Part shown: positions 15,178-40,930 of the stretch, one piece after another
Numbering within the stretch: the stretch's first letter is position 1
How the letters are laid out: each line of letters opens with the position of its first letter
Assembly: GCF_000955955.1 (NCBI RefSeq)
Contig: NZ_JYJG01000086.1
Coordinates: 5,597-69,596 of the forward strand
Direction: 5' to 3'
DNA from: Lentzea aerocolonigenes
Lineage (GTDB): Bacteria > Actinomycetota > Actinomycetes > Mycobacteriales > Pseudonocardiaceae
Length of the DNA: 64,000 nt
Notes under the pieces: generated by a model
The model's database searches: none
What the model was told of the DNA's origin: nothing
The model's input: the letters and a program-made list of their open reading frames with translations, nothing else
Made by a program: the position numbers and the translations under genes

Positions 15178-15215
15178 TTACTGTCGAGTAATACTCTGTT
15201 GTTACCGGTCAGTAG
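15178..15215. promoter_or_regulatory. Paired YTACTNNNNAGTAR operators upstream of fadE5
   Basis: TTACTGTCGAGTAA at 15178-15191 is a palindrome matching sites near fabG4 and the SCP2 gene. A second copy with one mismatch, TTACCGGTCAGTAG, is at 15202-15215, 24 bases on. Both lie 38-75 bases before the fadE5 start, where a TetR repressor would block transcription. Confidence 0.65.
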
Positions 15216-15252
15216 GCGACCCCGCCGCGACCCTGAGGAGTGAGCTGACGAG

Positions 15253-17085
15253 ATGGGCCACTACAAGAGCAACGTCCGGGATCTCGAATTCAACCTGTTC
15301 GAGGTCTTCAACGTGCAGGACCACCTCGGCAAGGGGCCGTTCGAGCAGTCCGACGAGGACACCGCGCGCGGCGTTCTGTCCGAGATGAAGACCCTGGCGG
15401 AGGGTCCCCTCGCGGACTCGTTCGCCGACGCCGACCGGAACCCGCCGAAGTACGACCCGGCCACGTTCTCCGCGACCCTGCCGGAGTCGCTGAAGAAGTC
15501 GTACCAGGCGATCTGGGACGGCGAGTGGTACCGCATGTTCCTGCCAGAGGCGCTGGGCGGCTTCGGCACGCCGCCGTCGGTCGCGTGGGCCGCGTCCGAG
15601 ATGATCCTCGGCGCCAACCCGCCGATCTACATGTACCTGGCGGGCCCGAGCTTCGCGACTGTCGTCTACAACAACGGCACCGAGCGCGACCAGCACTGGG
15701 CTCAGCTGATGATCGACCGCGGCTGGGGCGCCACGATGGTGCTGACCGAGCCGGACGCCGGTTCGGACGTCGGCGCCGGTCGCACCAAGGCGATCAAGCA
15801 GGACGACGGCTCCTGGCACATCGAGGGCGTGAAGCGCTTCATCACGTCCGGTGACCAGGACCTGACCGAGAACATCATGCACATGGTGCTGGCCCGTCCC
15901 GAGGGCGAAGGCATCGAGGCCAAGGCGGGCACCAAGGGCCTGTCGCTGTTCCTCGTGCCGAAGTTCCACTTCGACCCGCAGACCGGTGAGCTGGGCGAGC
16001 GCAACGGCGCCTTCGTGACCAACGTCGAGCACAAGATGGGCATCAAGGCGTCCACCACGTGCGAGCTGACGTTCGGCCAGCACGGCGTTCCCGCCAAGGG
16101 CTGGCTGCTCGGCGAGGTGCACGACGGCATCGCGCAGATGTTCGACGTCATCGAGTACGCCCGCATGATGGTCGGCACCAAGGCCATCGCGACGCTGTCG
16201 ACCGGCTACCTGAACGCGCTGTCCTACGCCAAGGAGCGCGTCCAGTCCGCCGACCTGACGCGGATGACGGACAAGACCGCCCCGCGCGTCACCATCACCA
16301 ACCACCCGGACGTCCGCCGCAGCCTGATGCTGCAGAAGGCGTACGCCGAGGGCCTGCGCGCCGTGTACCTGTACACCGCGACGTTCCAGGACAAGGTGAT
16401 GCTCGGCGGCGACGACGCCAAGCTCGCGGCCGCGGTCAACGACCTGCTGCTGCCGATCGTCAAGGGTGTCGGCTCGGAGCGCGCGTACGAGCAGCTGGCG
16501 CAGTCGCTGCAGACCCTGGGCGGCTCGGGCTTCCTGCAGGAGTACCCGATCGAGCAGTACATCCGCGACTCGAAGATCGACTCGCTGTACGAGGGCACCA
16601 CGGCCATCCAGTCGCTGGACTTCTTCTTCCGGAAGATCATCCGTGACAAGGGCCAGGCGCTCGCGTTCATCAACGGCGAGATCCAGTCCTTCCTCGACAA
16701 CGAGGGCGGCAACGGTCGTCTGAAGGAGGAGCGCGCGCTGCTCAAGCAGGGTCTCGAGGACCTGCAGGGCATGCTCGGCTCGCTGGTCGGCTTCCTGACC
16801 ACCTCGCAGGAGGACGTCCGCAACCTCTACAAGGTCGGACAGAACTCGGTCCGCCTGCTGATGACCGCGGGTGACGTGCTCGTCGGCTGGCTGCTGCTGC
16901 GCCAGGCCGAGGTCGCGCTGCAGAAGCTCGACGGCGCCTCCGCCAAGGACAAGTCCTTCTACGAGGGCAAGATCGCCGTGGCGTCGTTCTTCGCGAAGAA
17001 CGTGCTGCCGGAGCTCACCGCCCGCCGCAAGATCGCGGAGTCCACGGACAACGCGCTGATGGACATCGACGAGAGCGCCTTCTAG
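15253..17085 (+). CDS. fadE5: Long-form acyl-CoA dehydrogenase, FadE5-like
   Basis: At 610 residues this matches the long acyl-CoA dehydrogenases with an extra C-terminal domain. The start GHYKSNVRDLEFNLFEVF is nearly that of Mycobacterium tuberculosis FadE5 (recalled, not searched). It catalyses FAD-dependent alpha-beta oxidation of fatty acyl-CoAs, the first step of beta-oxidation. Visible are the FAD-binding TEPDAGSDVGAGRTKA and WHIEGVKRFITSGD segments and the catalytic-base region DSLYEGTTAIQSLDFFFRK. The upstream operators match those of fadA2/fabG4, which are adjacent to fadE5 in mycobacteria but lie 21 kb away here. It ends at a strong terminator. Confidence 0.95.
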   Translation: MGHYKSNVRDLEFNLFEVFNVQDHLGKGPFEQSDEDTARGVLSEMKTLAEGPLADSFADADRNPPKYDPATFSATLPESLKKSYQAIWDGEWYRMFLPEALGGFGTPPSVAWAASEMILGANPPIYMYLAGPSFATVVYNNGTERDQHWAQLMIDRGWGATMVLTEPDAGSDVGAGRTKAIKQDDGSWHIEGVKRFITSGDQDLTENIMHMVLARPEGEGIEAKAGTKGLSLFLVPKFHFDPQTGELGERNGAFVTNVEHKMGIKASTTCELTFGQHGVPAKGWLLGEVHDGIAQMFDVIEYARMMVGTKAIATLSTGYLNALSYAKERVQSADLTRMTDKTAPRVTITNHPDVRRSLMLQKAYAEGLRAVYLYTATFQDKVMLGGDDAKLAAAVNDLLLPIVKGVGSERAYEQLAQSLQTLGGSGFLQEYPIEQYIRDSKIDSLYEGTTAIQSLDFFFRKIIRDKGQALAFINGEIQSFLDNEGGNGRLKEERALLKQGLEDLQGMLGSLVGFLTTSQEDVRNLYKVGQNSVRLLMTAGDVLVGWLLLRQAEVALQKLDGASAKDKSFYEGKIAVASFFAKNVLPELTARRKIAESTDNALMDIDESAF

Positions 17086-17102
17086 ACCGCCTCGTCAGAA
17101 CG

Positions 17103-17150
17103 ACGGGTCCCGCACCTCCTGCCCGAGGTGCGGGACCCGTTTTCTGTTGT
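17103..17150 (+). terminator. Strong Rho-independent terminator after fadE5
   Basis: A perfect 16-bp stem (17103-17118 with 17125-17140) and 6-base loop is followed by TTTTCTGTTGT. The stem could also stop the convergent DUF1206 transcript. Confidence 0.9.
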
Positions 17151-39450: not shown

Positions 39451-40223
39451 TGTTGCTGCGTGCCGCCCTGACGTCGTTCCGGCGTGGGGAAACCCTTGCG
39501 GCCCAGCCGGTTTCGGGGACGTTCGACGTCTCGCTGAAGCATCTCGCGGCCTACAACGCGGTGTGCGGGTTCGGGTTGCGCGACGCGTTGCCGCTGACCT
39601 ATCCGCACGTGCTGGGCTTTCCGTTGCAGATGAAGCTGATGACGGGCTCGGGGTTCCCGTTCCCGTTGCCCGGCCTGGTGCACATCGCGAACCGGATCAC
39701 GCAGTCGCGGCCGTTGACGTTGGACGAGCCGCTGGAGATCACGGTGACCGCACGCGATCTCCGTCCGCATCCGCAGGGCACGCAGGTCGACGTGGTGACG
39801 TCGGTTTCCGGTGTGTGGGAAGGCGTTTCGACCTACCTGCGCCGGACAGGAGGCGGGTCTTCCGGGACTGAGGAGCTGGAACGGCCGGTCGGGTCGGCGG
39901 TGTGGCGGGTGCCCGCGGACATCGGGCGCCGGTACGGGGCCGTGTCCGGCGACCGCAACCCCATCCACCTCCACCCGGTGAGCGCCCGGCTGTTCGGGTT
40001 CAAGCGGGCCATCGCGCACGGGATGTGGACGAAGGCGCGCTGCCTGGCCGCGCTGGAGGGCCGGCTGCCAGAGGCCGTGACGGTGGACGTCCGGTTCAAG
40101 AAGCCGCTGCTGATCCCGGGGCGTGTCGAATTTTCGGCCTCCGAGGTTTCCGGCGGCTGGGAGTTCGGCGTGTGGGGCAAAGGACCCCACTTGCTGGGTT
40201 CAGCCCAAGATCTAACGCCGTGA
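39450..40223 (+). CDS. htdX: MaoC-type 3-hydroxyacyl-thioester dehydratase, HtdX-like
   Basis: This 257-residue protein is a double hot-dog enzyme. The C-terminal MaoC motif, YGAVSGDRNPIHLHP with catalytic Asp and His (about 170-185), and GFKRAIAHGMWTKAR are clear; the N-terminal half has a degenerate hot-dog. It hydrates or dehydrates 3-hydroxyacyl/enoyl thioesters between the FabG4 and FadE5 steps. It follows fabG4 with a TGATG overlap, as in mycobacterial fabG4-htdX. Its last 12 bases overlap the convergent TetR gene. Confidence 0.93.
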   Translation: MLLRAALTSFRRGETLAAQPVSGTFDVSLKHLAAYNAVCGFGLRDALPLTYPHVLGFPLQMKLMTGSGFPFPLPGLVHIANRITQSRPLTLDEPLEITVTARDLRPHPQGTQVDVVTSVSGVWEGVSTYLRRTGGGSSGTEELERPVGSAVWRVPADIGRRYGAVSGDRNPIHLHPVSARLFGFKRAIAHGMWTKARCLAALEGRLPEAVTVDVRFKKPLLIPGRVEFSASEVSGGWEFGVWGKGPHLLGSAQDLTP

Positions 40224-40847
40224 CGGCGGGTGCCAGACGTTGCCGTCGACGAGGTCGCCGAAGCCCATCCAGACGAGGTTCATGAGGCGTGCGGCGACGA
40301 CCCCGGCGGGTTCCTCCGGGTGATCGAGCCACCACTCGGCCAGTGACTCACCGGCCCCGACCAGCGCGGCGGCCAGCGACTCGGCTTCGAGCTTGGTCGC
40401 CGGCGCCTTCGTTGACTGGGTGAGCAGCGCCGCGACCAGCGACACCGCACGGGTGCGCATGTCCGTGAGCTCGACCGCGAACGGCCCGCCCTGGGTCGAC
40501 GCCTGGCGGTGCAGCACCATCCAGCTGGCCCGGTTCTCGCCGACGAACCCGAAGAACGCCCGCAGCCCGCTCCACAGCTGGACGTCGGGTTCCTGGTCGG
40601 GCTCGACGCCAGTCGCGATGGCCTCCATCATCCGCGTGGCCTCACGCCGGATGCAGGTCGCGAACAGCTCTTCCTTCGACCCGAGGTACGCGTAGAGCAT
40701 GGGCTTGGAGATGCCCGCGACGTCGGAGATCTCGTCCATCGAGGCGGCGTGGAAGCCGAGCCGCGAGAACACGTCGACGGCGGCGTCCATGATCTGCCGC
40801 TCACGCACTGCGCGTGGCAAGCGCTTGGCTCGACCTTCTGTGCGCAT
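40212..40847 (-). CDS. TetR-family regulator of the lipid locus
   Basis: This protein of about 211 residues has a TetR helix-turn-helix: RERQIMDAAVDVFSRLGFHA, then EISDVAGISKPMLYAYLGSKEEL. The ligand domain is long-helical (FFGFVGENRASWMVLHRQAS). The start is ATG 40847 or GTG 40850. It faces the SCP2 gene across two YTACTNNNNAGTAR palindromes, and the same sites control fadA2/fabG4 and fadE5. It is therefore the likely repressor of all, released by an acyl-CoA or sterol-derived ligand; this is inference. Confidence 0.92.
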   Translation of the reverse strand: MRTEGRAKRLPRAVRERQIMDAAVDVFSRLGFHAASMDEISDVAGISKPMLYAYLGSKEELFATCIRREATRMMEAIATGVEPDQEPDVQLWSGLRAFFGFVGENRASWMVLHRQASTQGGPFAVELTDMRTRAVSLVAALLTQSTKAPATKLEAESLAAALVGAGESLAEWWLDHPEEPAGVVAARLMNLVWMGFGDLVDGNVWHPPSRR

Positions 40848-40900
40848 CACACCCCCTCGGTTCAGAGGAGCAAGATTATCCGATCGGGTTGCCGCCGTAC

Positions 40901-40930
40901 CTACTCGACAGTAGTCTTACTCGCGAGTAG
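40901..40930. promoter_or_regulatory. Paired operators between TetR and SCP2 genes
   Basis: CTACTCGACAGTAG (40901-40914) and TTACTCGCGAGTAG (40917-40930) are again 16 bases apart, start to start. The second ends 18 bases before the SCP2 ATG. Confidence 0.75.

What the first reader, a model, noticed from the sequence alone, without database searches (positions are those of the whole stretch)
15178..40930. One palindromic operator, YTACTNNNNAGTAR, in pairs before fadE5, fadA2/fabG4 and the SCP2 operon
Six 14-base sites are seen at 15178, 15202, 38175, 38191, 40901 and 40917. At fadA2/fabG4 and TetR/SCP2 the paired sites are exactly 16 bases apart. The only divergent regulator is the TetR protein at 40212-40847, so it likely represses all three promoters. 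In mycobacteria fadE5, fadA2, fabG4 and htdX are neighbours (recalled); here fadE5 is 21 kb away but keeps the sites.
Basis: partly seen in the sequence, partly recalled or inferred. Interest (0 to 1): 0.75.

Follow-up and report, generated by a model that had tools for sequence, protein, structure and literature searches.

The report
Twin operators at fat-burning genes
Paired 14-base palindromes sit on the promoters of fat-degradation genes in a Lentzea soil bacterium; comparison with related bacteria suggests that a neighbouring TetR-type switch controls two of the three promoters, while the third carries a differently spaced pair that remains where this switch is missing.

Summary
The sites are real. 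Four of six match YTACTNNNNAGTAR exactly, 15202 and 38175 with one mismatch; all six match the wider YTACYNNNNRGTAR (0.02 expected). The window is Lentzea. A site before the TetR gene is kept in 78 of 80 named and 27 of 38 more distant loci, and before fadA2 in 72 of 72 and 24 of 26 usable loci; four control patterns gave none. The 16-bp twin overlaps a conserved TTGCC-N17-TAGNNT promoter. Autorepression and repression of SCP2 and fadA2/fabG4 by this TetR is the best reading. The single-TetR model is doubtful for fadE5: its pair is spaced 24-25 bp, and wider-motif sites remain there in four of four family genomes without the TetR orthologue. Against a clean split: one of those genomes also keeps a single wider-motif site before fadA2. 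The genome holds 24 exact sites, one before an etfD-like gene 3 kb left of the window, and the FasR-like gene's own upstream carries the motif in 15 of 20 genomes. Who binds fadE5 is open. No binding data exist here.

The parts
40212..40847 (-). TetR-family regulator (211 aa), proposed repressor of its own/SCP2 and fadA2/fabG4 promoters
   Evidence: Pfam TetR_N + TetR_C_46; closest solved chain 3f1b by sequence and by predicted fold, then FasR
40901..40914 (.). operator 1 of the TetR/SCP2 pair, CTACTCGACAGTAG
   Evidence: a site at <=1 mismatch before TetR in 78 of 80 named loci
40917..40930 (.). operator 2 of the TetR/SCP2 pair, TTACTCGCGAGTAG, 16 bp from operator 1
   Evidence: spacing 16 in 58 of 61 pairs before TetR in the named loci, 15 in the other three
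40889..40894 (+). predicted -35 TTGCCG of the SCP2 promoter
   Evidence: 17 bp from the -10; TTG in 57 of 58 named loci with a 16-bp twin
40912..40917 (+). predicted -10 TAGTCT at the junction of the two operators
   Evidence: TAGNNT in 57 of 58 such loci (TA and the purine come with the operator itself)
40943..41578 (+). SCP2-domain protein (ORF from GTG 40943; ATG at 40949 after AGGAGG is the likelier start)
   Evidence: Pfam SCP2; sequence
41594..42808 (+). acyl-CoA dehydrogenase, next gene after SCP2
   Evidence: Pfam
38175..38188 (.). operator 1 of the fadA2/fabG4 pair, CTACTAGCGGGTAG (one mismatch)
   Evidence: wider motif
38191..38204 (.). operator 2 of the fadA2/fabG4 pair, TTACTAGCGAGTAG
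   Evidence: site before fadA2 in 72 of 72 usable named and 24 of 26 usable other loci
38186..38191 (+). predicted -10 TAGACT toward fabG4 at the operator junction
   Evidence: TAGACT in 41 of 48 twins found away from TetR in the named loci; no conserved -35
36956..38161 (-). fadA2, thiolase
   Evidence: NCBIfam PRK09268 above cut-off; solved FadA2 7xly E 2.5e-163
38206..39450 (+). fabG4, 3-oxoacyl reductase (in-frame ATG at 38209)
   Evidence: NCBIfam PRK08261 above cut-off; FabG4-type structures E 1e-122 or better
39450..40223 (+). htdX-like MaoC dehydratase, start overlapping the fabG4 stop (TGATG)
   Evidence: Pfam MaoC_dehydratas; start read; the name htdX follows the finding
15178..15191 (.). 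fadE5 operator 1, TTACTGTCGAGTAA, in the -35/-10 spacer
15202..15215 (.). fadE5 operator 2, TTACCGGTCAGTAG, 24 bp from operator 1
15169..15174 (+). predicted -35 TTGCCG of fadE5
15192..15197 (+). predicted -10 TACTCT of fadE5
15253..17085 (+). fadE5, acyl-CoA dehydrogenase
   Evidence: full-length match to solved chains 6kpt E 1.6e-282 and 6kse (named FadE5) E 9.3e-275

Best explanation
One TetR box, YTACYNNNNRGTAR, is used in two arrangements at fat-oxidation genes. Arrangement 1, twins 16 bp apart (mostly CTACT...AGTAG in the window's family), is bound by the TetR protein at 40212-40847. Two dimers 1.5 helical turns apart would cover the spacer and -10 of the SCP2 promoter and the -10 of fabG4, so the protein represses its own gene, the SCP2 and dehydrogenase genes, and fadA2/fabG4-htdX. 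An acyl-CoA is the likely inducer. Arrangement 2, a pair 24-25 bp apart before fadE5 (TTACY...RGTAR) and a similar, mostly single, site before an etfD-like gene, answers mainly to another regulator of the same family, possibly the FasR orthologue. Shown: sites, conservation, spacing, promoter context, persistence at fadE5 without the TetR. Inferred: binding, repression, ligand, and who binds which site.
For: Arrangement 1: 61 exact + 17 one-mismatch of 80 named loci and 13 + 14 of 38 others before TetR; before fadA2 66 + 6 of 72 usable and 18 + 6 of 26 usable; four control patterns 0 in every set. In 324 such sites TAC and GTA never vary though one mismatch was allowed anywhere. Distance between the two pairs varies while sites stay. 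A 17-bp-spaced TTG -35 in 57 of 58 named twin loci. No 16-bp twin before fadA2 in the three assessable genomes without a close TetR (G188, G020, G001). Arrangement 2: fadE5 3 exact + 26 one-mismatch of 29 usable, etfD 14 + 12 of 30; three control patterns 0 or 1 each; fadE5 spacing 24-25 in 27 of 29; outer base mostly T against mostly C in arrangement 1. Wider-motif sites at fadE5 in G188, G219, G299, G311, which lack the TetR orthologue. FasR: motif before 15 of 20 FasR-like genes; its crystallised fas DNA contains TACTGGCGAGTT, one base off the core (PMC7382501 passages).
Against: No binding, expression or ligand data. G188, without the TetR orthologue, keeps a single wider-motif site before fadA2 (CTACCTGCAGGTAA), and G001 a one-mismatch one, so the box at fadA2 also outlives this TetR. 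G247 has a TetR orthologue (52%) but only a single wider-motif site, no twin, in 181 bp before fadA2. 2 of 80 and 11 of 38 loci have no site before the TetR gene, L162, L163, L165 and L199 of the Mycobacterium-like genus among them. In Mycobacteriaceae-like genomes the fadA2/fabG4 site is mostly single with T outside, and fadE5 is mostly single or paired at 27 bp, so the two arrangements are distinct only nearer the window. G219, without the TetR, also lacks the etfD site, as do three others of 30. In 50 genomes of a family without the TetR the 14-mer still occurs 91 times against 21 controls. Position-5 preferences depend partly on how sites were picked. About a quarter of the named loci are Lentzea.
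Confidence: 0.62

Rival explanations
1. One reading: one TetR represses all three promoters (and etfD) through one operator; spacing differences are tolerated.
For: Same box in all, exact at the first fadE5 site and at etfD in Lentzea. All are fat-oxidation genes.
Against: Wider-motif sites at fadE5 in four of four TetR-less family genomes; own spacing at fadE5; other TetR relatives carry the motif.
Confidence: 0.2
2. The 14-mer is a family-level TetR box read by several paralogues in overlapping fashion, with no clean division of labour.
For: 24 exact sites in the genome, 20 of 24 kept in a second Lentzea; varied neighbouring genes; wider-motif site before fadA2 also without the TetR in G188 and G001; a P1 paralogue beside a site; shared SKP start of the recognition helix.
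Against: P3 paralogue has the motif in 0 of 20 upstream regions; spacing is sharply conserved in the family.
Confidence: 0.3
3. The FasR orthologue (C498:24777-25355) is the common regulator of all sites; the local TetR binds only its own promoter.
For: FasR-like proteins (274-287 bits, cut-off 330) in TetR-less G188 and G219 and in G083; motif before 15 of 20 FasR-like genes; FasR DNA has a similar site.
Against: The 16-bp twin before fadA2 is missing in G188 although FasR is present, and twins accompany the TetR gene itself.
Confidence: 0.1

Closest known systems
FasR (Rv3208) of Mycobacterium tuberculosis
   Same: TetR fold, best curated family match, and crystallised DNA with a TACT-N4-AGT-type site
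   Different: 95 bits against a cut-off of 330: not a FasR; the genome has a separate FasR-like protein (288 bits). FasR activates fas-acpS (PMC7382501 passages); here repression is inferred
Rv0238-type TetR of mycobacteria
   Same: TetR beside htdX-fabG4/fadA2, 41-46% identical in the Mycobacterium-like genus g27, site between fadA2 and fabG4. PMC4482099 (passages) lists Rv0238 among five TetRs conserved in all mycobacteria analysed
   Different: No SCP2 hit beside it there, a single site at fadA2/fabG4, often no site before the TetR gene. That this gene is Rv0238 rests on recalled gene order
3f1b, TetR-like regulator from Rhodococcus sp. RHA1
   Same: Closest solved chain by sequence (E 5.9e-49) and by predicted fold, 50% identity
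   Different: The listings seen name no function or operator
FadR of Bacillus (TetR type)
   Same: Regulator of fatty acid degradation; next fold matches after FasR
   Different: 14-16% identity; different operator (recalled)

Membership tests
TetR-family regulator | TetR_N DNA-binding domain | tested here: met
   PF00440 49.9 bits, cut-off 24; TetR_C_46 92.1 bits, cut-off 27
TetR-family regulator | all-helical TetR fold | tested here: met
   model pLDDT 86.3; Foldseek best 3f1b and FasR
TetR-family regulator | binds a palindromic operator at its own promoter | tested here: inconclusive
   palindromes conserved; binding not testable
FasR equivalog (NF053731) | curated score 330 bits | tested here: not met
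   95 bits
Rv0238-type orthologue group | synteny with fadA2/fabG4/htdX | tested here: met
   Mycobacteriaceae-like loci L162-L164, L167-L171, L197; not in L165, L166, L198, L199 as fetched
Rv0238-type orthologue group | identity of the mycobacterial gene as Rv0238 | not tested
   genomes unnamed; gene order recalled
acyl-CoA-responsive TetR repressor | acyl-CoA releases it from DNA | not testable with these tools
   only fold similarity to FasR and FadR

The most novel reading that the evidence does not exclude
Mycobacteriales divide fat oxidation between two acyl-CoA-sensing TetR switches that share one box but use it in different arrangements: an Rv0238-type repressor on 16-bp twins (SCP2, fadA2/fabG4/htdX) and FasR at fadE5 (24-25-bp pair) and etfD, so the activator of fatty acid synthesis would also gate the entry of beta-oxidation electrons into respiration.
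Probability: 0.2. Interest if true: 0.68.

Novelty: new member of a known kind. Interest (0 to 1): 0.48.

Why it matters
It gives predicted operators for a little-studied TetR that is widespread in the order, and for fadE5 and an etfD-like gene; mycobacterial EtfD is described as linking beta-oxidation with respiration (PMC8593149, PMC13083937; only the starts of their abstracts were seen). The spacing difference in this family makes two candidate regulons separable by experiment. It also warns against assigning every copy of a shared TetR box to the nearest TetR gene.

Tried and rejected
Single-regulator model for all sites: weakened, not excluded, by TetR-less genomes. FasR identity for the window TetR: rejected on the curated cut-off. 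Second TetR in the window (13408-14031) as fadE5 regulator: no site of either pattern at its start, not pursued. P3 paralogue as binder: 0 of 20. Whole-genome counts as proof for this TetR: rejected, since a TetR-less family is enriched too (91 against 21 in 50 genomes; in the window's family 511 against 85 in 51 genomes with a TetR hit at 1e-40, and 9 against 4 in the three without, one of which, G267, has a 48% relative just below the threshold). Two-mismatch scans: near chance. Literature: ten searches; no listed title or abstract start concerns this operator or an Rv0238 regulon; several lists were capped and only open-licence papers are held. The literal-pattern search found one paper, PMC545781; its two passages concern a lysine regulator in Desulfovibrio. 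Papers seen in passages only: PMC4482099, PMC12687858, PMC7382501, PMC7652896, PMC8872791, PMC5541348, PMC545781. Conservation of the FadD-like (C138) site across the family was not tested: one search did not complete. One row (L172, 19% identity) was dropped from the first protein alignment; one fadE5 locus of 30 (L289) was left out for lack of upstream sequence.
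Full report
Observation. YTACTNNNNAGTAR occurs exactly four times in the window (15178, 38191, 40901, 40917; 0.01 expected). The other two, 15202 and 38175, carry one mismatch. The wider YTACYNNNNRGTAR matches just these six (0.02 expected). Pairs are 16 bp apart at two promoters and 24 bp at fadE5. The window is Lentzea: the TetR is 99% identical to that of L. kentuckyensis.

Genes. fadE5 and fadA2 match solved FadE5 and FadA2 over their length, and fabG4 matches FabG4-type structures. The TetR has TetR_N and TetR_C_46 domains; its predicted fold is closest to 3f1b and FasR. 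SCP2 is followed by an acyl-CoA dehydrogenase; htdX starts within the fabG4 stop.

Whole genome. The 14-mer occurs 24 times exactly against 5 for the reversed pattern; the 12-base core 32 times against 9. Neighbouring genes include acyl-CoA synthetase-like enzymes, a thiolase, lipases or hydrolases and TetR genes, but also genes with no clear lipid role. Of the 24 sites, 20 are kept as exact sites in a second Lentzea genome, G215; the SCP2 left site is changed there, and three (in L019, L025, L034) have no counterpart among its 22 sites. As local control, 46% of ten-position sets around the compared sites are identical; these loci were found through kept sites, so the comparison flatters the sites. 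One exact site lies 3 kb left of the window before a 739-residue protein with CCG and Fer4 domains, which I call etfD-like; the Rv0338c link is recalled and no NCBIfam model reached its cut-off.

Arrangement 1. The scan kept the best 80 of 105 TetR relatives. Of these 80 loci, 61 have an exact and 17 a one-mismatch site within 250 bp before the TetR gene; of 38 loci from other genera and families, 13 and 14. Before fadA2 the numbers are 66 + 6 of 72 usable and 18 + 6 of 26 usable; with the wider motif 72 of 72 and 26 of 26. Strict and wider controls scored zero in every set. Spacing was 16 in 58 of 61 pairs before the named TetR genes and in all 46 pairs before named fadA2 genes; in the 38 others only 9 and 4 such pairs were found. 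Across 324 sites TAC and GTA never vary; mismatches fall at positions 5/10, and three times at the outer base. About a quarter of the named loci are Lentzea; the rest span Saccharothrix, Kutzneria, Amycolatopsis, Actinokineospora, Actinopolyspora and others.

Promoter. In the 58 named loci with a 16-bp twin before TetR, the operator junction reads TAGNNT in 57 and a TTG -35 lies exactly 17 bp upstream in 57. Part of the -10 is given by the operator itself; the -35 is not. In the window these are TTGCCG 40889-40894 and TAGTCT 40912-40917. Of 48 twins elsewhere in the named loci 41 give TAGACT, without a conserved -35. Two dimers 16 bp apart would sit on roughly opposite faces over the promoter; repression is inferred.

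Arrangement 2. fadE5 has a site at one mismatch or better in 29 of 29 usable family loci (3 exact + 26) and the etfD-like gene in 26 of 30 (14 + 12); three control patterns gave 0 or 1 each. The fadE5 pair is 24-25 bp apart in 27 of 29; the etfD-like sites are mostly single. The outer base is mostly T, against mostly C in arrangement 1. In the window fadE5 operator 1 fills the 17-bp spacer after TTGCCG 15169-15174, and operator 2 follows TACTCT 15192-15197. The etfD-like gene there has the wider motif in 16 of 20, eight as pairs 25 bp apart. In these genomes the fadA2/fabG4 site is mostly single with T outside, so the two arrangements differ clearly only in the window's own family.

Testing the attribution. 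Of 40 family genomes, 35 have a TetR orthologue (E 4.7e-61 or better), G301 has a 57-residue fragment, and four (G188, G219, G299, G311) have only distant paralogues; G311 is 86% complete. G188, G299 (a 55% relative) and G311 also keep an etfD-type site, G219 does not. G219, G070 and G151, without a close TetR, also lack fabG4 at E 1e-80. G247 has a TetR orthologue but only one wider-motif site before fadA2; G267 cannot be judged. So the twin goes with the TetR, but the box itself does not wholly.

Who binds fadE5. The FasR-like protein (288 bits, cut-off 330) has the motif before its gene in 15 of 20 genomes, the P3 paralogue in 0 of 20, P1 in 7 of 20 by the same rule. FasR-like proteins are present in G188 and G219. 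The M. tuberculosis FasR crystal DNA contains TACTGGCGAGTT (PMC7382501, passages). FasR is a candidate, not a finding.

Conclusion. The operator is real, old and, by conservation, functional. The local TetR probably controls SCP2 and fadA2/fabG4-htdX through 16-bp twins. fadE5 carries a sister arrangement with a separate or additional regulator. This is a new member of a known kind, TetR control of fat metabolism.

Noticed in passing
window 13408-14031 (-) and 14031-15101 (+): A second TetR gene abuts, divergently, an FAD-binding monooxygenase; no copy of the motif, strict or wider, lies between them.
   Followed up: partly
L227 4176-4332, L221 4179-4329: In two genomes without the TetR orthologue, fadA2-fabG4-htdX is a co-directional operon starting divergently from another gene whose fragment looks TetR-like by eye (L227 fragment 13.8 bits to TetR_N, cut-off 24; L221 fragment no match): a possible regulator swap.
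   Followed up: partly
L033 (G000 C460), site 3000-3013: A TetR paralogue (36% identical) and a flavin monooxygenase flank an exact motif copy; the site is sporadic in orthologues.
   Followed up: partly
L024 (G000 C293), site 3000-3013: An exact motif lies between divergent genes for an acyl-CoA synthetase-like enzyme and an ECF-type sigma factor, kept in a second Lentzea.
   Followed up: partly
L411-L420: Second fadE5-like copies in Mycobacteriaceae-like genomes lack the motif (0 of 10), unlike the best-matching copy (20 of 20).
   Followed up: partly
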